A DNA stretch of 64,000 bases. Origin: Meghimatium bilineatum. Lineage: Eukaryota > Mollusca > Gastropoda > Stylommatophora > Philomycidae. Below are positions 3,341 to 64,000 of this stretch, one piece after another. Made by a program: the position numbers and the translations under genes. The notes beneath the pieces were generated by a model. The model had not been told where the DNA came from. It did not search any database and saw only the letters and a list, made by a program, of their open reading frames with translations. Numbering within the stretch: the stretch's first letter is position 1; each line of letters opens with the position of its first letter. The DNA lies in contig CM067319.1 of NCBI GenBank assembly GCA_034231615.1, positions 8,232,391 through 8,296,390 of the forward strand, in the 5' to 3' direction.

Positions 3341-3369
3341 AGGGTTTAGCGAATACTAGATAGCTGAGT

Positions 3370-3968
3370 GTTTGAACTGAAACGGTATCGAGTGATAGTG
3401 AGTGTGTGAACTGTTGCAATATCGAGTAATGGTGAGTGTGTGAACTGTTGCAATATCGAGTGATGGGGAGTGTGTGAACTGTTGCAATATCGAGTGATGG
3501 GGAGTGTGTGAACTGTTGCAATATCGAGTGATAGTGAGTGTGTGAACTGTTGCAATATCGAGTAATGGTGAGTGTGTGAACTGTTGCAATATCGAGTGAT
3601 AGTGAGTGTGTGAACTGTTGCAATATCGAGTGATGGGGAGTGTGTGAACTGTTGCAATATCGAGTGATGGGGAGTGTGTGAACTGTTGCAATATCGAGTG
3701 ATAGTGAGTGTGTGAACTGTTGCAATATCGAGTAATGGTGAGTGTGTGAACTGTTGTAATATCGAGTAATGGTGAGTGTGTGAACTGTTGCAATATCGAG
3801 TGATAGTGAGTGTGTGAACTGTTGCAATATCGAGTAATGGTGAGTGTGTGAACTGTTGCAATATCGAGTGATGGTGAGTGTGTGAACTGTTGCAATATCG
3901 AGTGATAGTGAGTGTGTGAACTGTTGCAATATCGAGTAATGGTGAGTGTGTGAACTGTTGCAATATCG
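3370..3968. repeat. 34-bp minisatellite, about 17-18 copies
   Basis: The unit theme is gatagtgagtgtgtgaactg then ttgcaatatcgagt, period 34. It shares a TGGTGAGT.TGTGAAC....AATATC.AGT backbone with the array at 1840-2372, so the two are diverged relatives. Because 34 is not a multiple of 3, three units make a 102-bp in-frame cycle, which produces spurious minus-strand ORFs of 200+ codons. Confidence 0.96.
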
Positions 3969-3970
3969 AA

Positions 3971-4877: not shown

Positions 4878-5300
4878 TTGTGTTGGTGGGGCCAAATAGG
4901 GAGAAAAGAATAGTGGCGCTGTTATCTGCAGTGCATGTCGTAAGAGGCCTCTTCTTCTTCAGAGTTCTTTCTCAAACTCCCACTGCGTCTCTCTTGTAGC
5001 AGGAAAATTAGACTTCCACCAGGATGAAGTCTAGAGAATGGAAATGCGTTGTGTCGCCATTTTATTTCCACCAATATACTGACACATCCGTCTTCGGCAA
5101 TGTCGGAGTAGACGACTAATGATGTTTTAATGGTGAAGATTGCTATCCCATTTCAAAGAGGGTCAAAGTGACACAGAATCCATCTGGAAATCGAATGTAT
5201 CATAGCAAAACTCGCAGATATCACATCCGAGCTGTAAACCGTGAGAACGGGTCGGTTCTCGTGACTAGATCCTGCTACGCTGCAACAGTCTGGGAACGAT
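4878..5300 (+). mobile_element. SINE-B interrupted by a SINE-A
   Basis: The SINE-B head reads from tgttggtggggcc to gtcgtaagaggc (to about 4948) and resumes at about 5109 (gacgactaatg). It is diverged through the aagtgac and gctgtaaaccgtg landmarks. The interruption is the SINE-A at 4950-5098. Imperfect flanking copies, atgtcgtaagag and atgtcggagtag, may be an eroded target duplication. Confidence 0.7.
4950..5098 (-). mobile_element. SINE-A inside SINE-B
   Basis: On the plus strand it reads from cttcttcttcag through ctcaaactcccactg, ctctcttgtagcagg and gaaatgcgttgtgtcgcc to cacatccgtcttcggc, the complement of the usual SINE-A. Because SINE-B resumes directly after it, SINE-A inserted later. 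Confidence 0.85.
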
Positions 5301-9890: not shown

Positions 9891-10216
9891 TACGTATTCC
9901 CAGTTGCAATATATGGATGTAAATCTTGGACAATCAACAATGCACCACGAGAGACATTCTGAGACAATCGAATGTAGGCGAAATCTGGCTAAACAACAAT
10001 GTTCTCTCTTCTAGAAAATTATTACAATATTTTGTCCATATTAAACAGCAGGAACCCATAGAAAATAACATAATGTAGGAAGTATGCCACAAAGAAGATG
10101 GATGCAATATATCAAAGATAACCTGAACGTAAACGCTCGTGGTTGCGTCTGTGGGTCTCACCAATGGCCCACTAGACAAACCACCCGTGCAACAGAAAAC
10201 CTTAGTGGATGACATG
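9891..10216 (+). mobile_element. LINE fragment (RT thumb to 3' end), decayed
   Basis: Begins with TYVFPVAIYGCKSWTI, the RT-thumb YGCE.WT motif, then frame-shifted text with PQRRWMQYIKDNLN and a terminal ENLVDDMPLY-like stretch before ttatattgagg. The last 75 bp recur inverted at 1072-1152. Confidence 0.65.
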
Positions 10217-11153
10217 CCGTTATATTGAGGTCAGCGCAAGGTGTCCCCTACACAGAGCCAGTGATCACAGTAAAGGAACAAAAACTTAATACTGCCAATA
10301 AGTTTGTATATCTCGGCAGCACACTATCACAAACTGCGACAATTGACGAGGATGTTGCCCTGCGTATTGCTCGTGCCAGTGCAGCATTCGGGAGCCTTCG
10401 TGCCAACGTCTGGAACAGGCGTGGTCTCAGTCTGACAACTAAGTTGGACCTGTACCGCGCAGTGGTTCTACCAACACTGCTTTATGCTGCGTCATCCTGG
10501 ACTGTCTATGCGAGACACGCTCGACAGCTTAACTCTTTTCATCTTCGGTGCCTACGAAACCTCATGAGAGTACATTGGCAGGATCGTGTACCATATACGG
10601 AAATTCTTCAGAAGTCCCGTATGCAAAGCATCCATGCAATGCTGACTAGGTCCCAACTCCACTGGACTGGCCACATCGTCTGTATGCCAGACAAACGCCT
10701 CCCAAAGAGATTATTCTATGGGAAAGTGTGCGAAGGTTCTTGGAAGACAGAAAAAGCGCTTCAAGGATCACCTAAAAAGCTCTCTAAAAAACTGCAGCAT
10801 CGATCCTAGCTCCTGGGGGGACTACAGCACTTGATCGCTCAGTCTGGCACACTCAGATCACTGCTGGCATCACGAAATTTGAAAAAGAAAGAACACTGCG
10901 GGCAATCCACAAGAGCAACAAGCGGAAGGACAAATCCGTAAATTCTCCTACCCCGAAACTCCATCACCCCTGCATGTACTGCAATAAAACTTTCCGTGCA
11001 CGAATCGGACTAATCGGGCATCTATGAACTCACAAACTAAATTAGTTAATTACCAATTTTAATTATTATTATATATATATATTCATCGCATTTAATGGGT
11101 TTTTTTCCCTGCTATGCTCATCTTCGCTTGCGAAGGAGGAACATCATCATCAT
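10217..11153 (+). pseudogene. LINE RT C-terminus with zinc-finger end
   Basis: The frame at 10225-10809 is well preserved. It encodes KFVYLGSTLSQTATIDEDVALRIARA (read here as two linked motifs), NVWNRRGLS..TKLDLYRAVV, TLLYAASSWTVYARH, LRCLRNLMRVHWQDRVPYTE and LTRSQLHWTGHIVCMPDKRLP. A one-base frameshift near 10730 moves the rest (KKRFKDHLKSSLKNC, DPSSWG, FEKERTLRA) into another frame. It ends in a C2H2-like finger CMYCNKTFRARIGLIGHL, then a TGA where the family has an arginine codon, a CpG-type nonsense change. A small hairpin (cttcgcttgcgaag, 11122-11135) and a (CAT)n tail at 11142-11153 close the element. Confidence 0.88.
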
Positions 11154-12890: not shown

Positions 12891-13063
12891 TCTTCTTCAG
12901 AGTTCATTCTCAAACTCCCGCTGGATCTCTCTTGTAGCAGGACAATGGTCCTAGCAGATTTCCTGCAGGGTCCAGAGAATGGTCCAGTAGTCCAGAGAAT
13001 GAAAATGCACTGTGTTGAAGTTTTATTTGCCAAAATGGCCCAACACATCTGACTTCGGTTGAA
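12891..13063 (-). mobile_element. SINE-A with 10-bp TSD
   Basis: Complement of SINE-A flanked by catattgaga at 12881-12890 and 13064-13073. Inside is a 20-bp local duplication of gtccagagaatg, so it is 173 bp instead of about 162 bp. The stretch from 13074 to 13320 is unassigned. Confidence 0.92.
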
Positions 13064-16846: not shown

Positions 16847-17085
16847 AGAAATGTCAAGGTCAATGATGCAGTAACGTATGAAGGTTAAGATGTCAAGGTC
16901 AATGATGCAGTAACGTATGAAGGTTAAGATGTCAAGGTCAATGATGCAGTAACGTATGAAGGTTAAGATGTCAAGGTCAATGATGCAGTAACGTATGAAG
17001 GTTAAGATGTCAAGGTCAATGATGCAGTAACGTATGAAGGTTAAGATGTCAAGGTCAATGATGCAGTAACGTATGAAGGTTAAGA
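16847..17085. repeat. 39-bp minisatellite, 6 copies
   Basis: The unit atgtcaaggtcaatgatgca plus gtaacgtatgaaggttaag, essentially identical in all copies, suggests recent expansion. The flank from 17086 to 17620 is unassigned AT-rich sequence. Confidence 0.97.
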
Positions 17086-21960: not shown

Positions 21961-22024
21961 AAATGACTTCTCTTTGACAACAGCAGAACTACAATCGTAT
22001 CACAAGAGACGCATTTAGAAGTCT

Positions 22025-22413
22025 TCTGTGTCAGCGTTAGTTTTCAAACTCCTGCAAATCGGCATCAGGTAGTTCTCAAACTCCTGCAAGTCGGCATGAG
22101 GTAGTTCTCAAACTCCTGCAAATCGGCATGAGGTAGTTCTCAAACTCCTGCAAATCGGAATGAGGTAGTTCTCAAACTCCTGCAAATCGGCATGAGGTAG
22201 TTCTCAAACTCCTGCAAATCGGAATGAGGTAGTTTGGAGAACGGATTGCTTTGTCTCGTGATTTACAGATTGACTTCAATCAGTACCTGCGCCTTTTTCC
22301 CGACACACCCGATTTCGGCATCGCTTCTGTGTCACTGTCACCTGATATGGGATTGGACAACATATTCCACCCCATAACCTCCTAAGATGCCTCTTACAAT
22401 ATGCAATGAAGGT
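22025..22413 (-). mobile_element. SINE-B with internal 32-bp array
   Basis: Tail side cttctgtgtcagcgttag, then six copies of the 32-bp unit, then normal SINE-B (ggagaacggattgctttgtc, gacacacccgatttcggcat, cataacctcctaag). The head is truncated after gaaggtaaa. Confidence 0.88.
22047..22234. repeat. 32-bp minisatellite from the SINE-B 3' module, 6 copies
   Basis: The unit ctcaaactcctgcaaatcgg plus catgaggtagtt amplifies the same SINE-B segment as the array at 8794, but as an independent event with a different unit. Confidence 0.95.
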
Positions 22414-22439
22414 AAATTCGAGTTCCTGACTATACACGA

Positions 22440-23869: not shown

Positions 23870-24600
23870 CTTTATATCGGAGGAAAGGAGATTTCATCAA
23901 ATAGGCCTGCAGATGACACCATCCTAATATCAAGGAGCCCCCACAGGTTTAGGGCGCATGATGTTGTTGTCTATCCGTGTTGCATGATACCATGGTTTCT
24001 CGTGCACCTCTCAGTCTGGTATCTCCGACTTCAGCACCAGTGATTACTTAGGCTGGACTGTAGTTCTGCTAGACGTCAGGGTTGGCCTCTGTTTGCTGGA
24101 CCATCCCCCTCACTACTTCAAGGAGTTGGTCTCGATGGAGAGAACAAGTGATTATTTCACTTAAATATCATAGCGGGACACAAAATCTTTTCTTCAATAC
24201 AAAAATAATGAACATCAACAGAGATGAACTCACAGCTACAATAGTCATGACCAAAGACAACTCGAAAATGTCAGCAATTTTGAATATTCCGGGTCAATCA
24301 TCAATACCACATTTCTCATCGGAGATCAGAAAGAGATTAGCAATGACCCTAAAAAAGCATCACAAATGAAAAATGTATGGCAAAAGCCACATACACACAC
24401 AAAAACAATGTTGAAACTATTAAGAAGTTATATTTTCCCAGTAACAGCATATGGTTGTGAGACATGGACAATGGCATCCGTAATAGAAAAATATATCACC
24501 ATTCGAAATGATGAAATTCATGCACAGAATTAAAATGATGTTGAAATCTGTGAACAAAGAAACAGATGGGTCATGCGAAACACTTGGAGGACAATCTAGA
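23870..24600 (+). mobile_element. RTE-like LINE RT fragment
   Basis: PADDTILISRSPHRF at about 23908-23950 is the RT catalytic ADD block. The open frame 24082-24369 carries MNINRDELTATIVM and SSEIRKRLAMTLKK, and then LLRSYIFPVTAYGCETWTM (24415-24475), the RT thumb. The frame changes at least twice. Confidence 0.8.
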
Positions 24601-24605
24601 AATAT

Positions 24606-24970
24606 ATGAACAGCCCAAATCCTAAAGACAACATCAACCTCCTGGGAAGGAAAGACCAGAGTATCATCTTCCGACTGCGCACACAACATGTACAGCTTAA
24701 CATTCACCTGAACAGAATACAACCACAACACACTCGAGGGTGTCGGCTGTGCACTCATCCCTATGAAACTGTTGACCACCACCTTTTTGAATGTCCAGCG
24801 ATGGATGGCATCAGAAAAATGCTTCTCCCTCAAGGGCCAGATAAATGGAACACATTATATGGAACAAAACAACAGCTCAAAAACATGCATATATCACACA
24901 ATGGCATTGGATCACAGGACATGAGCCCATGGACCGCTGGATCAGCAACCAACCAACCAACCAACCAAAT
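24606..24970 (+). mobile_element. LINE 3' end carrying the SINE-D tail
   Basis: The open frame encodes KDQSIIFRLRTQHVQLNIHL, then CRLCTHPYETVDHHLFECPA, KWNTLYGTKQQLKN and a stop in the same frame downstream. This is the C-terminal cysteine/HILxxCP end of an RT-RNase H LINE. The terminal sequence gacatgagcccatggaccgc, then tggatcagcaacc(aacc)n, is the same tail found on SINE-D copies. Confidence 0.85.
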
Positions 24971-25064
24971 GAAATGTTATAGACAATTAATAAGAATGTC
25001 ATGGACAGAAAGATGAACCAAGATTCAACATTTTCATGACTTTTTCATATTATCGGCATCATCA

Positions 25065-27711: not shown

Positions 27712-27842
27712 AAAAAATCCATGCTGAAGTTGGATGTGTCAGCCCAAAAGGCTCGGATATCTCACCATAGCTGTAAAATGCATTCCGTTCTCAGAACTTC
27801 ATCGTTCTAACCTGTAGGAGCGTCAGAGCAAGCGCACGAATT
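27712..27842 (+). mobile_element. SINE-B 3' half
   Basis: ccatgctgaagttggatgtg, tcagcccaaaaggc, gctgtaaaatgcattccgtt, then ctgtaggagcgtcagagcaa. The first half is absent. Confidence 0.75.
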
Positions 27843-29339: not shown

Positions 29340-30045
29340 TAAAAGGAGAATAGGAATGGCTAATAGTACCTTCAATATGCCATGAGGAAAATATTAACAT
29401 CTAAACAAATTACAAATAAGTTATAAAATGAGAGTTATAAGATGCTACATTCATTCTATATTAATGTATGGATCAGAAACATGGACACTAAATAAACCTT
29501 TAGAAGACAGAATTGATGCATTTGAGATGTGGGTATATTTCTTCTTCTTCTTCAGCGTTCATTCTCAAACTACTGCTGAATTCTCTTATAGCAGGACCAT
29601 GGTCCTACTAGATTTCCAGCAGGATGTAATCCAGAGAATGGAAATGCGTTGTGTCGCCGTTTTATTTGCGCCAATGGCCCGACACATCCGTCTTCGGTGG
29701 AGATGTGGGTATATAGAAGAATAGGGAGAACATCATGGAAAGAGAAGAAAACAAATACAGAGGTTAATATGAAGAAAAAAATTATTAAGAGAAATAAAGA
29801 TGAGGCAATAAAATATATTTGACACATTAAAAGACATGACACCTTATTGAAGACCTTACTTGAAGGGTAAAGCCAAAGGGAAGCGAACAAGGGGTAGACA
29901 GAGATACAAGTGGGAGAGTAACATCACAAGATGGACAGGTTACAGTCTAGCATAGTGCACCACCAAAACAAGAGACAAGGGATAATCGTTGTCTGTTGCA
30001 GCCAAACTTCATTGCGGAGACGGCACTTGATGATGCTGATGAGAG
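29340..30045 (+). mobile_element. LINE RT-thumb to 3' end, split by a SINE-A
   Basis: Before the SINE is VIRCYIHSILMYGSETWTLN (29428-29490) with AFEMWVY. After it come WVYRRIGRTSWKEKK, HIKRHDTLLKTLLEG, a GKRTRGRQRYKWESN-like block in another frame, and an AAKLHCGDGT stop (30000-30032), a very typical RTE-type end. A tgatgatgctgatga tail follows. Confidence 0.85.
29539..29699 (-). mobile_element. SINE-A with 15-bp TSD
   Basis: A 161-bp SINE-A flanked by perfect gagatgtgggtatat duplications (29524-29538 and 29700-29714). It sits inside the LINE codons for MWVY, which are therefore present twice. Confidence 0.97.
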
Positions 30046-35881: not shown

Positions 35882-36190
35882 TCCCCTTCTTTGTTGGTTC
35901 TTAAACTCGGCAATGTTAACATCTTGTATGCGATATCTACCCCTTTTGGGAAAGACATATCATATTTCAGCACGGCATCTGAGTCACTTTGACTGTCTAT
36001 AGAATGGGGCATTCAACTGCACCCAAAAATATCCTTAGTCATCACTACGATACAATGATTGGTAACAGTGTTGCTATTTTTTGCTCTCATTTCAACGATA
36101 CAATGAGTGGTAACAGTGTTGATATTTTTTGCTCTCATTTTAACGATACAATGAGTGGTAACAGTGTCGCTATTTTTTTGCTCTCCTTTC
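35882..36190 (-). mobile_element. Diverged SINE-B with triplicated head segment
   Basis: ttaaactcggcaatgttaac, gcgatatctacccc, catatttcagcacggcatct and tgagtcactttgac follow SINE-B order. The head region is present three times (see 36046-36189). Confidence 0.75.
36046..36189. repeat. 48-bp triplication of the SINE-B head
   Basis: Units starting at 36048, 36096 and 36144 contain cgatacaatgagtggtaaca, then gtgttgctattttttgctct. They match SINE-B acgacatgcatggaaggtaa through ctattctttgctcccctttc. Confidence 0.92.
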
Positions 36191-36224
36191 GGGCTCTTCT
36201 CCAGCTCTTGCGATGCTTTATGTG

Positions 36225-40662: not shown

Positions 40663-41278
<616 letters not shown>

Positions 41279-41296
41279 CCGTCTGTGTGTCTGTCC

Positions 41297-41344
<48 letters not shown>

Positions 41345-41345
41345 G

Positions 41346-41383
<38 letters not shown>

Positions 41384-41395
41384 ATATATATATAC
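41279..41395. repeat. (CTGT)n then (TA)n microsatellite
   Basis: About 24 ctgt units with one ggtc interruption, then tatatatatata. Confidence 0.97.
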
Positions 41396-42032: not shown

Positions 42033-42321
42033 CGCCCGTGTGATGCCGGGGCCCGAAAGAGGAGCAACGAATAGCAACACTGTTTACCTTCCATGCATGT
42101 CGTACGAGGCGACTAAGGAGGTTATGGGATGGAGTTGGCTGCCCCATTCCATATAGGGTCAGTGACCCAAAGCCATGCTGAAGTCGGATGTGTCGGGCCG
42201 AAAGGCACAGATATCGCAAAAATGCTCTAAACCATGACACAGCACATTCCGTTCTCCGGACTACATCCCGCTAATCTGCAGGAGTTTGAGAATGAACACA
42301 GAAGAAGAAGAAGAAAAAGAA
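42033..42321 (+). mobile_element. SINE-B, full length with 10-bp TSD
   Basis: 289 bp from cgcccgtgtgatgccggggc to a long GAA-rich tail. gaagacggac flanks it at 42023-42032 and 42322-42331. Confidence 0.95.
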
Positions 42322-42782: not shown

Positions 42783-42972
42783 CCACCGAAGACGGATGTG
42801 TCGGTCCATTGACGATAGAAAATAAATCCGCGCAAATAAAGCGGCGACACAACGCATTTCCATTCTCTGGACTATAGATCTATTCTATGGATCATGCATG
42901 AAATATAGTAGGTCCATTGTCCTGCTACAAGAGAGATCCAGCGGGAGTTTGAGAAAAAACGAAGAAGAAGAA
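42783..42972 (+). mobile_element. SINE-A
   Basis: ccaccgaagacggatgtgtc to gaagaagaagaa, with a small internal insertion near 42820 and a changed middle (ctatggatcatgcatg). It interrupts LINE codons LNKH/GYTST. Confidence 0.9.
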
Positions 42973-51530: not shown

Positions 51531-51793
51531 CTTCTTCTGCAATCATTCTCAAACCCTGCAGATTTCCATGCTGTACTGACAAAATGCATTGTAGCACGGT
51601 TTACAGATGGTGTGAAATATATGACCTGACAAATCCGACTTCAGCATGGCTTCCGGGCTCATTTTAATTCTCTGTGGGATAAATCAGTCAATTTCACCCC
51701 CCCCCCAGCATCCTTAGTCGCCTCTTACGGCAATTGTGGTAGGTAGCATTGTTTGTGCTCTTTGATACCCTTTCGGGGACAGGAACGCACCAG
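51531..51793 (-). mobile_element. SINE-B
   Basis: cttcttctgcaatcattctc to ctttcggggacaggaacgca, with the cagcatggcttccggg and ccttagtcgcctcttacg landmarks. Confidence 0.88.
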
Positions 51794-54495: not shown

Positions 54496-54835
54496 TGAAC
54501 CAAATGAAATCCATGATAAAGGCAGAACGACAGCCTAACTTACATCCACGGCACAACTACCACCTACTTAACAGACAAGAACAGGTCATCATATTTCGAC
54601 TGAGAACTGGACACAATAGACTAAACAGTCATATGTATACAAAATTTAAAATTGGTACATCAGCAAAGTGTAATTGTGGACAAGCGAACCAGACTTCAGA
54701 GGATATCCTTCAAGAATGTACAAGCTATAACACATTAAGATGCACATACTGGCCTTCTGATACACCTACGAATGTTAAACTCTGTGGTACACAACAAGAA
54801 ATGGAAAACATTATACAATTTAGATAATATTAGCC

Positions 54836-55432
54836 AACAATTCATGCAAGAAACAACACTGCAGATATAGATATTATTAGACATCAATTTATACAAGAAA
54901 CAATACTGCAGATATAGACATTATTAGACAACAATTTATACAAGAAACAACACTGCAGATATAGACATTATTAGACATCAATTTATACAAGAAACAACAC
55001 TGCAGATATAGACATTATTAGACATCAATTTATACAAGAAACAACACTGCAGATATAGACATTATTAGACAACAATTTATACAAGAAACAACACTGCAGA
55101 TATAGACATTACTAGACAACAATTTATACAAGAAACAACACTGCAGATATAGACATTATTATACAACAATTTATACAAGAAACAACACTGCAGATATAGA
55201 CATTCCTAGACAACAATTTATACAAGAAACAAAACTGCAGATATAGACATTACTAAATAACAATTTATACAAGAAACAACACTTCAGATATAGACATTAC
55301 TAAATAACAATTTATACAAGAAACAACACTGCAGATATAGACATTATTATACAACAATTTATACAAGAAACAACACTGCAGATATAGACATTATTATACA
55401 ACAATTTATACAAGAAACAACACTGCAGATCA
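54836..55432. repeat. 47-bp satellite, inverted relative to 1-968, about 13 copies
   Basis: The unit aacaatttatacaagaaaca, acactgcagatatagacatt, attagac is the reverse complement of the left-edge satellite. It starts directly after the LINE stop codon. Confidence 0.97.
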
Positions 55433-55477
55433 TTATCTTCATTATTTTGACAGTCGAAAATAATGACTAAACTTAAG

Positions 55478-55640
55478 AGGGGCGTGACCCAGAGGAGTAC
55501 TGAAGTCGAAAATGTCAAGTCAAAAGGCGGAGATATCACAGATATACTCTAAATCACGACCAAAAAAATATTTTCGTTCTCCGGAAAGCATCCTGTTAAC
55601 ATGCAGGAGTTTGAGAACGAACGCAGAAGAAGGAGGAGAA
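55478..55640 (+). mobile_element. SINE-B 3' half
   Basis: gcgtgacccagaggagtact, gaagtcgaaaatgtcaagtc, ggaaagcatcctgttaacat, gagtttgagaacgaacgcag and a GAA/GGA tail. Confidence 0.85.
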
Positions 55641-55646
55641 GAAAAT

Positions 55647-58600
55647 ATCAGATGTGTCGGTCTATTGGCACAAATAAAACAGCGATACAAAACATCTACG
55701 TTCTCTATAGAAAGTCATGCTTGAAATCTAGTAAGACCTTTGTTCCGCTACAAGAGAGAGATGGGAGTATGAGAACAATACAAGAGAGAGATGGGAGTAT
55801 GAGAACAATACAAGAGAGAGATGGGAGTATGAGAACAATACAAGAGAGAGATGGGAGTATGAGAACAATACAAGAGAGAGATGGGAGTATGAGAACAATA
55901 CAAGAGAGAGATGGGACTATGAGAACAACTTTGTTCCGCTACAAGAGAGAGATGGGAGTATGAGAGCAACTTTGTTCCGCTACAAGCGAGATGGGAGTAT
56001 GAGAACAACTTTGTTCCGCTACAAGAGAGATGGGAGTATGAGAACAACTTTGTTCCGCTACAAGCGAGATGGGAGTATGAGAACAACTTTGTTCCGCTAC
56101 AAGAGAGAGATGGGAGTATGAGAGCAACTTTGTTCCGCTACAAGAGAGAGATGGGAGTATGAGAACAACTTTGTTCCGCTACAATAGAGATGGGAGTATG
56201 AGAACAACTCTGTTCCGCTACAAGAGAGATGGGAGTATGAGAACAACTCTGTTCCGCTACAAGAGAGATGGGAGTATGAGAACAACTTTGTTCCGCTACA
56301 ATAGAGATGGGAGTATGAGAACAACTCTGTTCCGCTACAATAGAGATGGGAGTATGAGAACAACTCTGTTCCGCTACAATAGAGATGGGAGTATGAGAAC
56401 AACTCTGTTCCGCTACAAGAGAGATGGGAGTATGAGAACAACTTTGTTCCGCTACAAGCGAGATGGGAGTATGAGAACAACTTTGTTCCGCTACAAGAGA
56501 GAGATGGGAGTATGAGAGCAACTTTGTTCCGCTACAAGAGAGAGATGGGAGTATGAGAACAACTTTGTTCCGCTACAATAGAGATGGGAGTATGAGAACA
56601 ACTTTGTTCCGCTACAAGAGAGAGATGGGAGTATGAGAATAACTTTGTTCCGCTACAAGAGAGAGATGGGAGTATGAGAACAACTTTGTTCCGCTACAAG
56701 AGAGAGATGGGAGTATGAGAACAACTTTGTTCCACTACAAGAGAGAGATGGGAGTATGAGAACAACTTTGTTCCGATACAAGAGAGAGATGGGAGTATGA
56801 GAACAACTTTGTTCCGCTACAAGAGAGATGGGAGTATGAGAACAACTTTGTTCCGCTACAAGAGAGATGGGAGTATGAGAACAACTTTGTTCCGCCACAA
56901 GAGAGAGATGGGAGTATGAGAACAACTTTGTTCCGCTACAAGAGAGAGATGGGAGTATGAGAACAACTTTGTTCCGCTACAAGAGAGATGGGAGTATGAG
57001 AACAACTTTGTTCCGCTACAAGAGAGATGGGAGTATGAGAACAACTTTGTTCCGCTACAAGAGAGATGGGAGTATGAGAACAACTTTGTTCCGCTACAAG
57101 AGAGATGGGAGTATGAGAACAACTTTGTTCCGCTACAAGAGAGAGATATGGGAGTATGAGAACAACTTTGTTCCGCTACAAGAGAGCGATGGGAGTATGA
57201 GAACAACTTTGTTCCGCTACAAGAGAGAGATGGGAGTATGAGAACAATTTTGTTCCGCTACAAGAGAGAGATGGGAGTACGAGAACAACTTTGTTCCGCT
57301 ACAAGAGAGAGATAGGAGTATGAGAACAACTCTGTTCCGCTACAAGAGAGAGATGGGAGTATGAGAACAACTTTGTTCCGCTACAAGAGAGAGATGGGAG
57401 TATGAGAACAAATTTGTTCCGCTACAAGAGAGAGATGGGAGTATGAGAACAACTTTGTTCCGCTACAAGAGAGAGATGGGAGTATGAGAACAACTTTGTT
57501 CCGCTACAAGAGAGAGATGGGAGTATGAGAACAACTCTGTTCCGCTACAAGAGAGATGGGAGTATGAGAACTACTTTGTTCCGCTACAAGCGAGATGGGA
57601 GTATGAGAACAACTTTGTTCCGCTACAAGAGAGAGATGGGAGTATGAGAACAACTTTGTTCCGCTACAAGAGAGAGATGGGAGTATGAGAACAACTTTGT
57701 TCCGCTACAAGAGAGATGGGAGTATGAGAACAACTTTGTTCCGCTACAAGAGAGAGATGGGAGTATGAGAACAACTTTGTTCCGCTACAAGAGAGAGATG
57801 GGAGTATGAGAACAACTTTGTTCCGCTACAAGAGAGAGATGGGAGTATGAGAACAACTCTGTTCCGCTACAAGAGAGATAGGGAGTATGAGAACAACTTT
57901 GTTCCACTACAAGCGAGATGGGAGTATGAGAACAACTTTGTTCCGCTACAAGAGAGAGATGGGAGTATAAGAACAACTTTGTTCCGCTACAAGAGAGGGA
58001 TGGGAGTATGAGAACAACTTTGTTCCACTACAAGAGAGATGGGAGTATGAGAACAACTTTGTTCCGCTACAAGAGAGAGATGGGAGTATAAGAACAACTT
58101 TGTTCCGCTACAAGAGAGAGATGGGAGTATGAGAACAACTTTGTTCCGCTACAAGAGAGAGATGGGAGTATGAGAACAACTTTGTTCCGCTACAAGAGAG
58201 ATGGGAGTATGAGAACAACTTTGTTCCGCTACAAGAGAGAGATGGGAGTATGAGAACAACTTTGTTCCACTACAAGAGAGATGGGAGTATGAGAACAACT
58301 TTGTTCCGCTACAAGAGAGATGGGAGTATGAGAACAGCTTTGTTCCGCTACAAGAGATAGATGGGAGTATGAGAACAACTTTGTTCCGCTACAAGAGAGA
58401 GATGGGAGTATGAGAACAACTTTGTTCCGCTACAAGAGAGAGATGGGAGTATGAGAACAACTTTGTTCCGCTACAAGAGAGATGGGAGTATGAGAACAAC
58501 TTTGTTCCGCTACAAGAGAGAGATGGGAGTATGAGAACAACTTTGTTCCGCAACAAGAGAGATGGGAGTATGAGAAGAACTTTGTTCCGCTACAAGAGAG

Positions 58601-58985
58601 ATGGGAGTATGAGAACAACTTTGTTCCGCTACAAGAGAGAGATGGGAGTATGAGAACAACTTTGTTCCGCTACAAGAGAGAGATGGGAGTATGAGAACAA
58701 CTTTGTTCCGCTACAAGAGAGAGATGGGAGTATGAGAACAACTTTGTTCCACTACAAGAGAGATGGGAGTATGAGAACAACTTTGTTCCGCTACAAGACA
58801 GATGGGAGTATGAGAACAACTTTGTTCCGCTACAAGAGAGATGGGAGTATGAGAACAACTTTGTTCCGCTACAAGACAGATGGGAGTATGAGAACAAGTT
58901 TGTTCCACTACAAGAGAGATGGGAGTATGAGAACAACTTTGTTCCGCTACAGAGAGATGGGAGTATGAGAACAAACGAGACACAA
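55647..58985 (+). mobile_element. SINE-A whose 3' module is expanded about 3.2 kb
   Basis: A normal SINE-A 5' part (atcagatgtgtcggtctatt, gcacaaataaaacagcgata, gaaatctagtaagac) runs straight into the array at 55741. After the last unit, gagaacaaacgagacac may be the remains of the SINE end. No intact (GAA)n tail remains. Confidence 0.9.
55741..58975. repeat. Giant 30/40/42-bp minisatellite from the SINE-A 3' module, about 78 copies
   Basis: The unit tttgttccgctacaagagag plus agatgggagtatgagaacaac, with 40-bp (gagat) and 42-bp (gagagat) forms. The first six units are a 30-bp version (aatacaagagagagatggga). It aligns with SINE-A ttgtcctgctacaagagaga through gggagtttgagaatgaac. Copies are very uniform, suggesting recent expansion. 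Confidence 0.98.
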
Positions 58986-59425
58986 TGTATTTGTCTGTCC
59001 CTTCTGCCACCACTAATCATGGACTCTAGGTCTATATTGTTTGGAAAACCAAAAACAACCTTCTTCCTGATTTCGCAAAGTATGGGAAGCAAAAAAGAGA
59101 TGACAAAACTGGCTAAGATCAAAGGAGACTATGACAATGTCACACGAGGTCAGATGTCATTAATCCCCCCACATTCTCTGACCTTTGTGTCACAGGTAGT
59201 ATCACTAGTTCCCTCTGTCAAGTTTTGACTTACCCAAGACAAATTTATAACACCCAGACAGAACTGTTAATGTCTGGAAAAGACTTTAAGTCTTCAGTAT
59301 TTTATTATTATTTTAAATGTCGTTAAGTAAACTGACTCTAACCCATGTCCTCTATCTGTCCTTGTCTCCGAACTCTTTCACTCGATCTTTTCTAGTTATC
59401 TTTCTTCGAATACTGGATCAAAGAG
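58986..59425. other. Unassigned stretch
   Basis: ORF 58965-59228 starts within the array and has no recognisable domain. No feature is supported. Confidence 0.45.
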
Positions 59426-62453: not shown

Positions 62454-62640
62454 TATATATGTATATATACGTAAATGTGAACAGACTCCCCGTGAGTGTG
62501 ATGCTGACTCTTGGCGTACTGTGTACTGATGATAGTTTAACTAAATCTTTTCGACATGACAGACACATTTTCAGAGATCTCCTAATGTACACAGGAAACA
62601 TGAGCCTGGGGAGGCTTGCACTTCCTGGGCATCTACGTTT
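62454..62640. other. Unassigned stretch
   Basis: No supported feature. Confidence 0.5.
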
Positions 62641-63280
62641 TCTTCTTCTTTATCGTGTTTTCTCAAACTCCCACTGGATCTCTCTTGTAGCAGGAAACAT
62701 TCTCAAACTCCCACTGGATCTCTCTTGTAGCAGGAAACATTCTCAAACTCCCATTGGATCTCTCTTGTAGCAGGAAACATTCTCAAACTCCCGCTGGTTC
62801 TCTCTTGTAGCAGGAAACATTCTCAAACTCCCATTGGATCTCTCTTGTAGCAGGAAACATTCTCAAACTCCCACTGGATCTCTCTTGCAGCAGGACACAT
62901 TCTCAAACTACCACTGGATCTCTCTTGCAGCAGGACACATTCTCAAACTCCCACTGGTTCTCTCTTGCAGCAGGACACATTCTCAAACTCCCACTGGATC
63001 TCTCTTGTAGCAGGACAACATTTTCAAACTCCCGCTGGATCTCTCTTGTAGCAGGACACATTCTCAAACTCCCACTGGATCTCTCTTGTAGCAGGACAAC
63101 ATTTTCAAACTCCCACTGGATCTCTCTTGTAGCAGGACAACATTTTCAAACTCCCGCTGGATCTCTCTTGTAGCAGGACAATGGTTCTACTAGATTTTCA
63201 GCGGGATATAATCCACAGAATAAAACTGCATGTGTCGCTGTTTTATTTGCGTCAATGGTCCGACACACCCGTCTTCGGCG
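62641..63280 (-). mobile_element. SINE-A with internal 40-bp array
   Basis: Tail (tcttcttctttatcgtg), 13 copies of a 40-bp unit, then normal SINE-A (atggttctactagattttca, gtgtcgctgttttatttgcg, acacacccgtcttcggcg). Both SINE ends are intact around the array. Confidence 0.95.
62661..63180. repeat. 40-bp minisatellite from the SINE-A 3' module, 13 copies
   Basis: ctcaaactcccactggatct plus ctcttgtagcaggaaacatt. The same SINE segment as the giant array at 55741, but on the other strand and with its own variants (aggacacatt, aggacaacatttt). Confidence 0.98.
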
Positions 63281-63667
63281 GAAATATAAATAAAACACAT
63301 ACTTTGCCCACAAAAATACATACTGAAATCGGATTGCAGAGCGCATATATCGCTGCCTCACTGTTTAATCGCGGTACAATGTAACAGCTGAACTATTCCG
63401 AGGGAACTGAGAAATACATGTGGTCATGATCTCATCACAACGTGTTCCCACAGTCGCCGTGGGTGACCGTTGACCATAGATTAGATATAATGTCCTGTCT
63501 AGACTGCGGGGTTGATTAACTTTTACTCTATGCAGCCCATGGTTTATAAACCTCTCGAGCAGAGTACACGGTCAAAGTGGTCGCGATTTACGTGAAGAAT
63601 TATAAACAGTAGATGCATGGTATCCCTCTATAGCGAATCTTTTTATAACAACTTTTTAAGATCCACA
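63281..63667. other. Unassigned stretch
   Basis: No supported feature. Confidence 0.5.
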
Positions 63668-64000
63668 ATATCTTCTTCTTCTCTGCGTTCGTTTTCAAAC
63701 TCATGCAGATTAACGGAATGCGCTATTTCATTGTTTCCAATAGAAGGTGGTACTGCTAGTAGAACATAATGGAAAATAATACTCACGTGGAAGACAGGTA
63801 ATGAAGTCCTACTGAATGACGACTAAAACACTACACACTATCACTAACGGATGTAAATATGGTACATACAACAAAACAAAACACAGAATATAATCTACAA
63901 ATGACAATACACAGGACATTTGTATTATATGTCATTGTTTATAGATCAACTGCGATACCTGCGCCTTTTGGCATACTACATCCTACTTCAACATGGGTTT
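63668..64000 (-). mobile_element. SINE-B split by a 195-bp insert, running off the window
   Basis: The tail side cttcttcttctctgcgttcg reaches tcattgttt at 63728-63736. The SINE resumes after tcattgttt at 63932-63940 (atagatcaactgcgatacct, gcgccttttggc). The 9-bp repeat is the likely target duplication of the insert 63737-63931, which has no recognised identity. Confidence 0.75.

What the first reader, a model, noticed from the sequence alone, without database searches (positions are those of the whole stretch)
55647..58985. A SINE 3' module has been expanded into a 3.2 kb minisatellite
Seen: the first 95 bp are an ordinary SINE-A, which continues into about 78 copies of its own ctgctacaagagaga..gagtttgagaa segment with 30-, 40- and 42-bp unit forms. 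Inference: a mobile SINE acted as the nursery of a large satellite, and the near-identity of units implies recent growth.
Basis: partly seen in the sequence, partly recalled or inferred. Interest (0 to 1): 0.85.

Follow-up and report, generated by a model that had tools for sequence, protein, structure and literature searches.

The report
Minisatellite grown inside a SINE-like retroposon
A short jumping element in this animal-like genome has had one piece near its end repeated about 82 times in place; related elements elsewhere in the same genome carry shorter runs of the same piece, so this is a good new example of a known way in which repeats give birth to minisatellites.

Summary
The array is real. 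Window 55651-58974 is a 5'-truncated, diverged copy of a 161-nt retroposon ("SINE-A") whose 3' module is repeated about 82 times (mainly 30, 39 and 41 bp). Its junction occurs 75 times in the 1.61-Gb genome, all at this locus; its private variant is in 78 of 82 units but 0 of 28 other window copies examined. Growth was local. It is not unique: another SINE-A copy (62640-63281) has 13 modules with a different junction, which occurs 2,234 times genome-wide. All 20 loci fetched for it carry 2-23 modules; SINE-A 5' sequence was detected in 16 of 20. Units are more alike within than between loci in 13 of 14 loci. One duplicated-module form apparently spread by retroposition, then expanded locally. 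Several, not all, duplications end at the base of a 3' hairpin. SINEs are not favoured nurseries: 4 of 36 hand-picked window arrays are SINE-derived, 6.2 expected. SINE-derived satellites are already published in squamates and a limpet. Verdict: new member of a known kind, with a mobile-seed twist.

The parts
55484..55643 (+). 5'-truncated SINE-B copy directly upstream of the SINE-A copy
   Evidence: BLAST to other copies and consensus
55651..55737 (+). SINE-A 5' part (consensus about 13-99), diverged, 5'-truncated
   Evidence: 77% identity to the SINE-A consensus over 55651-55775; alignment
55738..55778 (+). first module (41 nt), still joined to the SINE 5' part
   Evidence: sequence; alignment to SINE-A
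55779..55928 (+). five 30-bp units that lack 11 bp of the module
   Evidence: TRF and unit splitting
55929..58974 (+). main array of 39/41-bp units (76 unit lengths)
   Evidence: TRF 41-mer row; unit splitting; junction found 75 times, only here
58975..58987 (+). possible degraded remnant of the SINE 3' tail after the last module
   Evidence: read by eye from the sequence; weak
62640..63281 (-). second expanded SINE-A copy: 5' head, 13 modules of 40-41 bp (62660-63178), SINE tail kept
   Evidence: family junction counted
22022..22416 (-). SINE-B copy with 32-bp module array (22038-22234), tail kept; direct repeat AAACTA at both edges (by eye)
35929..36194 (-). SINE-B copy with internal 48-bp x3 array from its 5' part (36047-36190)

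Best explanation
The feature is a minisatellite that grew inside an old retroposon copy. SINE-A is a 161-nt short retroposon whose 3' end forms a hairpin followed by a GAAGAAG tail. In this copy the 3' half of the hairpin (from the apical loop to the base) was duplicated, with a junction of its own, and the duplicate then expanded in place by slippage or unequal exchange to about 82 units; an 11-bp-shorter 30-bp form expanded at the 5' edge. Separately, another duplication of nearly the same module arose once in a SINE-A source element, was spread to many loci by retroposition, and seeded variable-number arrays there, including the 13-module array at 62640-63281. Shown: structure, local growth of array 1, dispersal of one shared junction, local similarity of units. 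Inferred: order of events, single origin of the shared junction, slippage or exchange as the growth step, the hairpin base as cause of the recurrent 3' breakpoint. No function is suggested.
For: Unit matches SINE-A (0 of 1000 shuffles for the 41-mer). The private variant GTATGAGA is in 78 of 82 units and 0 of 28 other window copies examined. Array-1 junction: 75 places, all at C22:8288305-8291306, inside this array. Neighbouring units are more alike than permuted ones (lag-1 edit 2.09 vs 2.51, p about 0.001). The array-2 junction occurs 2,234 times (<=3 mismatches; reversed-pattern control 0) on many contigs. All 20 loci fetched for that junction carry 2-23 modules; SINE-A 5' sequence was detected by pattern in 16 of 20, and a tail-like stretch (up to 7 edits in 20) in 19 of 20. 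Unit distance 2.25 within vs 4.79 between loci (14 loci, 147 units), lower within than between in 13 of 14. Two-module copies have outer target-site repeats (L036, 12-bp perfect; L032, 7 bp; L009, by eye). Two single-module SINE-A copies in the window have clear TSDs.
Against: Array 1 has no detectable target-site duplication, so its insertion as a retroposon is inferred from family membership; array 2 has none either. The junctions of arrays 1 and 2 lie within about 2-3 nt of each other, so array 1 might be a diverged descendant of the shared junction. One of 14 loci (L042) is as different within as between loci, and 4 of 20 fetched loci (L031, L034, L042, L047) showed no SINE 5' part by pattern. 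Neighbour similarity in array 2 is not significant (p 0.07). No population data show that the array is variable. The 20 loci come from the first 100 exact places listed, not a random draw.
Confidence: 0.83

Rival explanations
1. The expanded modules are made during retroposition: the reverse transcriptase of the partner LINE re-starts at the 3' hairpin of the RNA and copies the module again, so copies are inserted already carrying several modules.
For: Four distinct junctions (array 1, the family junction, array 3, the L005 copy) end within a few nt of the hairpin base while their 5' ends differ (read by eye). The 3' domain folds better than the stretch just upstream: RNA z medians -1.93 (17 B copies) and -2.28 (11 A copies) against -0.57 and -0.17; 14 of 28 copies have z below -2. 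That stringent-type LINE and SINE 3' ends carry a stem-loop is stated in PMC3747384 (passages read).
Against: Within-locus similarity and locus-private variants point to most of the copy number arising after insertion. Other internal duplications do not end at the hairpin base (L024; 36047-36190; the extra 15-bp pieces in 12898-13007 and 42855-42964). Array 3 is flanked by a 6-bp direct repeat, which fits plain slippage. 8 of 28 copies have z above -1. No partner LINE was identified.
Confidence: 0.25
2. The identical junction at many loci is recurrent: a DNA fragile point at the hairpin makes the same duplication again and again, with no mobile duplicated form.
For: Breakpoint clustering near the hairpin base in different junctions.
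Against: By eye the shared junction has no microhomology overlap in the consensus, yet it is identical at the 36 loci formed by the 100 exact places listed; array 1, which broke in nearly the same place, has a different junction found nowhere else. DNA folding of the module is weaker than RNA folding.
Confidence: 0.12
3. Unrelated minisatellite that by chance lies beside a SINE and resembles it.
For: The genome is rich in minisatellites: 35,006 of 200,000 sampled bases.
Against: Unit-to-SINE shuffle test, module continuous with the SINE 5' part, and the same module expanded in other SINE-A copies.
Confidence: 0.01
4. Assembly artefact (collapsed or inflated repeat).
For: Copy number in long arrays can be mis-assembled; no reads are available here.
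Against: 34 distinct unit types in a non-random order and many similar arrays elsewhere in the assembly.
Confidence: 0.04

Closest known systems
SINE-derived satellites (sSats) of squamate reptiles (Vassetzky et al. 2023, PMC10702118; abstract, Discussion and Squam3 section read)
   Same: Tandem units made from part of a SINE, an extended terminal unit that still shows the SINE, many loci with one unit type, longer loci more homogeneous, independent origins from different SINE families.
   Different: Here the unit is a 3' hairpin module (about 40 bp) of another SINE family, and SINE sequence often remains on both sides of the array (there mostly on one end); chromosomal position (subtelomeric there) was not tested.
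PcH-sat of the limpet Patella caerulea, with a Nin-SINE segment (PMC11121367; abstract and Discussion read)
   Same: Tandem repeat with a SINE-derived segment in an invertebrate.
   Different: 179-bp pericentromeric satellite at about 10% of the genome; here short, dispersed, about 40-bp minisatellites.
Mouse B1-derived VNTR family (Bois et al. 1998) and Alu-derived minisatellites (Jurka and Gentles 2006)
   Same: Minisatellites expanded from SINE copies.
   Different: Known to me here only as references and table entries in PMC6947457 (passages); the originals were not read, so differences were not examined.
SVA (SINE-VNTR-Alu) retrotransposons of primates
   Same: A retroposed element that carries a VNTR (search listing and start of abstract only, PMC6928650; details recalled).
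   Different: SVA is a composite of other parts (recalled); here the VNTR is made from the SINE's own 3' module, and it is not shown that many-module copies move as such.

Membership tests
SINE-derived satellite/minisatellite | repeat unit homologous to part of a SINE | tested here: met
   41-mer and 40-mer vs SINE-A, 32-mer vs SINE-B: 0 of 1000 shuffles each; 30-mer vs SINE-A 3 of 1000
SINE-derived satellite/minisatellite | terminal unit continuous with the rest of the SINE | tested here: met
   arrays 1-3 in the window; by pattern in 16 of 20 fetched loci
SINE-derived satellite/minisatellite | same unit boundaries at multiple loci | tested here: inconclusive
   met for the junction of array 2 (2,234 places); not met for array 1 (75 places, all at this locus)
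SINE-derived satellite/minisatellite | heterochromatic or subtelomeric location of long arrays | not tested
   listed places lie on several contigs; no position test was made
SINE (short TPRT retroposon) | target-site duplications of variable length around full-length copies | tested here: met
   A at 29700 and 33615 (15 and 11 matched bp, 0 of 200 shuffles), 13061 weaker (8 bp, p 0.025), the other 10 A copies tested not significant; B at 42131 and 15467 (11 bp each, no shuffle test; 8 B copies looked at). B rows used a start inside the element and say nothing
SINE (short TPRT retroposon) | RNA polymerase III promoter (A and B boxes), tRNA/5S/7SL head | tested here: inconclusive
   ARAGORN finds no tRNA and Rfam no family in the window; no box scan was run, none obvious by eye
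SINE (short TPRT retroposon) | 3' end shared with a partner LINE | not tested
   A and B share a 3' hairpin and tail, but no LINE with that end was sought genome-wide
Nin-DC SINE | conserved Nin central domain | not tested
   SINE-B has CGTAAGAGGCGACTAA, which resembles the Nin core as I recall it; a literature search for part of that string found nothing

The most novel reading that the evidence does not exclude
SINE-A is an SVA-like element made from its own parts: a duplicated-module master copy retroposes, every new insertion is a ready seed for a private VNTR, and the near-constant 3' breakpoint at the base of the 3' hairpin reflects reverse-transcriptase re-initiation at its recognition hairpin. 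The genome thus continually sows minisatellite seeds by retroposition.
Probability: 0.3. Interest if true: 0.6.

Novelty: new member of a known kind. Interest (0 to 1): 0.4.

Why it matters
It links mobile elements and minisatellites at the level of single junctions: one duplication junction can be followed over many insertion sites that now differ in copy number, while a neighbouring copy shows a junction found nowhere else. That makes the order 'duplicate, move, expand' testable, and gives many markers of likely variable length. The general fact that SINEs give rise to tandem arrays is already in print.

Tried and rejected
Rejected: chance resemblance; SINEs as preferred source of arrays (4 of 36 hand-picked window arrays vs 6.2 expected, P(X>=4)=0.89; 0 of 140 automatically selected arrays in 200 kb); arrays lying unusually often beside SINEs (p 0.09, 0.47, 0.08 at 20, 50, 100 bp). 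A lag scan up to 29 units showed falling similarity and no clear higher-order period, though TRF also lists a 121-bp (three-unit) period.

Led nowhere: Rfam and tRNA searches; Pfam on 10 ORFs (one sub-threshold zf-RVT); protein search of one RT-like ORF to name the host (169 hits, 120 listed, the few named ones from several animal groups; host not resolved); paper searches with sequence strings (one paper, about a human microRNA, which I took to be a chance string match and did not open; none) and (0 papers). DNA-parameter folding of six copies is weaker than RNA folding, and the three single array units tested do not fold better than shuffles, so a DNA-hairpin cause is weakly supported. The genome count of all SINE-A copies did not complete; a rough figure from 4 hits in 200 kb is about 32,000, too small a sample to trust.

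Rows dropped: hides hits inside 55430-59000; one search drops hits starting inside 55761-58979. The 3'-domain tests use 28 copies picked by hand from the 47 merged SINE loci; some further loci that reach into that domain (for example 5100-5299, 27715-27836, 51531-51777, 63672-63720) were not included. The nine copies folded were picked by me; all 28 were then folded. The 36 window arrays were picked by hand from the 90 TRF rows, period 12 or more, leaving out some short ones and simple repeats. For the 200-kb sample, the contigs were ones that had shown matches. One search compares at most 12 units per locus between loci. In array 2 the family-junction pattern itself matches only 3 times; its later junctions are 1 bp shorter variants.

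Full report
What is there. TRF finds a 30-bp array (55749-55928, 6.0 copies) running into a 41-bp array (55899-58974, 76.7 copies). Splitting on the unit core gives 82 anchors and 81 unit lengths: 34 of 39 bp, 32 of 41 bp, five of 40, four of 30, three of 42, one each of 31, 38 and 43; 34 unit types are distinct. The 30-bp form lacks 11 bp (CTTTGTTCCGC) of the long form.

The SINE. BLAST of the region against the window finds many dispersed copies. They fall into two related families. SINE-A is about 161 nt. SINE-B is longer: upstream sequence shared by copies extends it to about 281 nt, including a CGTAAGAGGCGACTAA stretch. The two consensus sequences align over the SINE-A length and have closely similar 3' ends, GGAGTTTGAGAA.GAACGC.GAAGAAG, the dots being the positions that differ. 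Outer target-site repeats were clear for two of 13 A copies tested (29700, 33615; 15 and 11 matched bp, 0 of 200 shuffles as good), weaker for a third (13061, p 0.025), and not significant for the other ten, both arrays included. Two of eight full-length B copies looked at have 11-bp repeats (42131, 15467, no shuffle test). Merged loci in the window: 47. I therefore accept 'SINE-like retroposon'; a pol III promoter and a partner LINE were not shown.

The copy at the finding. SINE-A starts at 55651 with consensus position 13 and is 77% identical to the consensus over 55651-55775. It sits right behind a truncated SINE-B (55484-55643). The first module, 55738-55778, is joined to the SINE 5' part, and the following units repeat it. 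The 41-bp unit aligns to SINE-A positions 102-140; 0 of 1000 dinucleotide-shuffled units score as well (30-bp unit: 3 of 1000).

Local growth. The unit variant GTATGAGA is in 78 of 82 units and in 0 of 28 other window copies of the 3' domain that I examined, where GTTTGAGA stands in 21. Neighbouring units resemble each other more than permuted ones (2.09 vs 2.51 edits, p about 0.001; for array 2 the same test gives p 0.07). In the 1.61-Gb genome that holds the window (C22:8232391-8296390; 32 contigs; not named), the array's own junction is found 75 times with up to 3 mismatches, all at C22:8288305-8291306, that is, in this array; the reversed control pattern gives 0. So this array is private to its locus.

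Other expanded copies. At 62640-63281 (minus strand) a SINE-A copy with its head and tail contains 13 modules of 40-41 bp; its junction reads GAGAATG|TTGTCCTGC in the first units and 1-bp-shorter variants later. At 22022-22416 (minus) a SINE-B copy contains a 32-bp array of the matching 3' module (0 of 1000 shuffles), flanked by AAACTA on both sides (by eye). At 35929-36194 (minus) a SINE-B copy has three copies of a 48-bp piece of its 5' part. Outside the window, a SINE-B piece in L005 has two copies of a 3' module, a SINE-A copy in L009 has two modules with the same junction as the 62640 array, and one in L024 has a duplication elsewhere in the element.

A shared junction. GAGTTTGAGAATGTTGTCCTGCTACAAGAG with up to 3 mismatches occurs 2,234 times (967 + 1,267), control 0. 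The 100 listed exact places form 36 loci, 14 with one place; 42 of 64 gaps are 41 bp. I fetched 8 loci with a single exact place and 12 with several. All 20 carry 2-23 modules; the SINE-A 5' part (head or 5' hairpin base) was detected by pattern in 16 of 20 (not in L031, L034, L042, L047), and a tail-like stretch with up to 7 edits in 20 in 19 of 20, the match in L033 being weak and L044 having none. In 14 loci with three or more full units (147 units, array 2 included), mean unit distance is 2.25 within and 4.79 between loci; it is lower within than between in 13 of 14, L042 being the exception (4.83 vs 4.74). L036 has two modules between perfect 12-bp repeats. The simplest reading is one duplication in a source element, spread by retroposition, with later expansion at each site. 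Array 1, with its own junction, is either an independent duplication at nearly the same place or a strongly changed descendant.

Why the same place? The 3' domain folds as a hairpin: in SINE-B CGTTCTC pairs with GAGAACG, in SINE-A CATTCTC with GAGAATG, one compensating change between families (single copies). RNA z-score medians are -1.93 (17 B copies) and -2.28 (11 A copies) against -0.57 and -0.17 for the stretch just upstream; 14 of 28 copies have z below -2 and 8 of 28 above -1. The array units of SINE-A run from the apical loop to the base. Four junctions (array 1, family junction, array 3, L005) end within a few nt of the base; other duplications (L024; 36047-36190; the 15-bp pieces at 12898-13007 and 42855-42964) do not. 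This clustering was noticed after the fact and is not a formal test.

A sobering control. In the window, SINE-A/B cover 17.2% of the bases outside the 36 arrays that I picked; 6.2 SINE-derived arrays would be expected by coverage and 4 are seen. In a 200-kb sample (20 stretches at round coordinates), tandem arrays of period 12 or more cover 35,006 bases, SINE-A/B cover 9,202 bases in 61 loci, and 0 of 140 arrays match a SINE by the same unit test; two-copy duplications (L009, L024) fall below that filter. This genome makes minisatellites widely; SINEs show no excess as a source.

Known or new. SINE-derived satellites are described in squamates, with units plus an extended terminal unit and many loci of one unit type (PMC10702118; abstract, Discussion and one results section read), and a limpet satellite contains a Nin-SINE segment (PMC11121367; abstract and Discussion read). 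B1 and Alu minisatellites are listed in a review (PMC6947457; passages). I saw no paper describing this SINE or its arrays in the listings of ten searches of an open-access library, which does not show that none exists.

Noticed in passing
1-657 and 54821-55430: The same 47-bp minisatellite lies at both ends of the window in opposite orientation, up to 100% identical over two units, with a fragment at 884-967.
   Followed up: partly
window; L009-L028: Very high minisatellite load: 16,758 of 64,000 bases in 36 hand-picked arrays and 35,006 of 200,000 bases in a sample.
   Followed up: partly
12898-13007 (-) and 42855-42964 (+): Two SINE-A copies share a similar 15-bp insertion in the hairpin that resembles a second CATTCTCTGGAC; may mark another subfamily with a small internal duplication.
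   Followed up: no
L007 1484-1638 (-): A SINE-A copy elsewhere shows a similar short deletion in the module (ATCCAGCGGG to ATGGG) as array 1 (by eye).
   Followed up: no
1843-2361 and 3365-3969: Two separate 34-bp arrays have related units (about 84-86% identical over 50 bp); the second lies just behind a SINE-B tail.
   Followed up: no
16851-17085; 40664-41391: A 39-bp repeat of 6 copies with 100% matches and a 728-bp TATC microsatellite.
   Followed up: no
10213-10806 (+) and 24600-25013 (+): Reverse-transcriptase-like ORF remnants; the first has 169 relatives, the few named ones from tapeworm, snail, annelid and fish entries, the second a sub-threshold zf-RVT match.
   Followed up: partly
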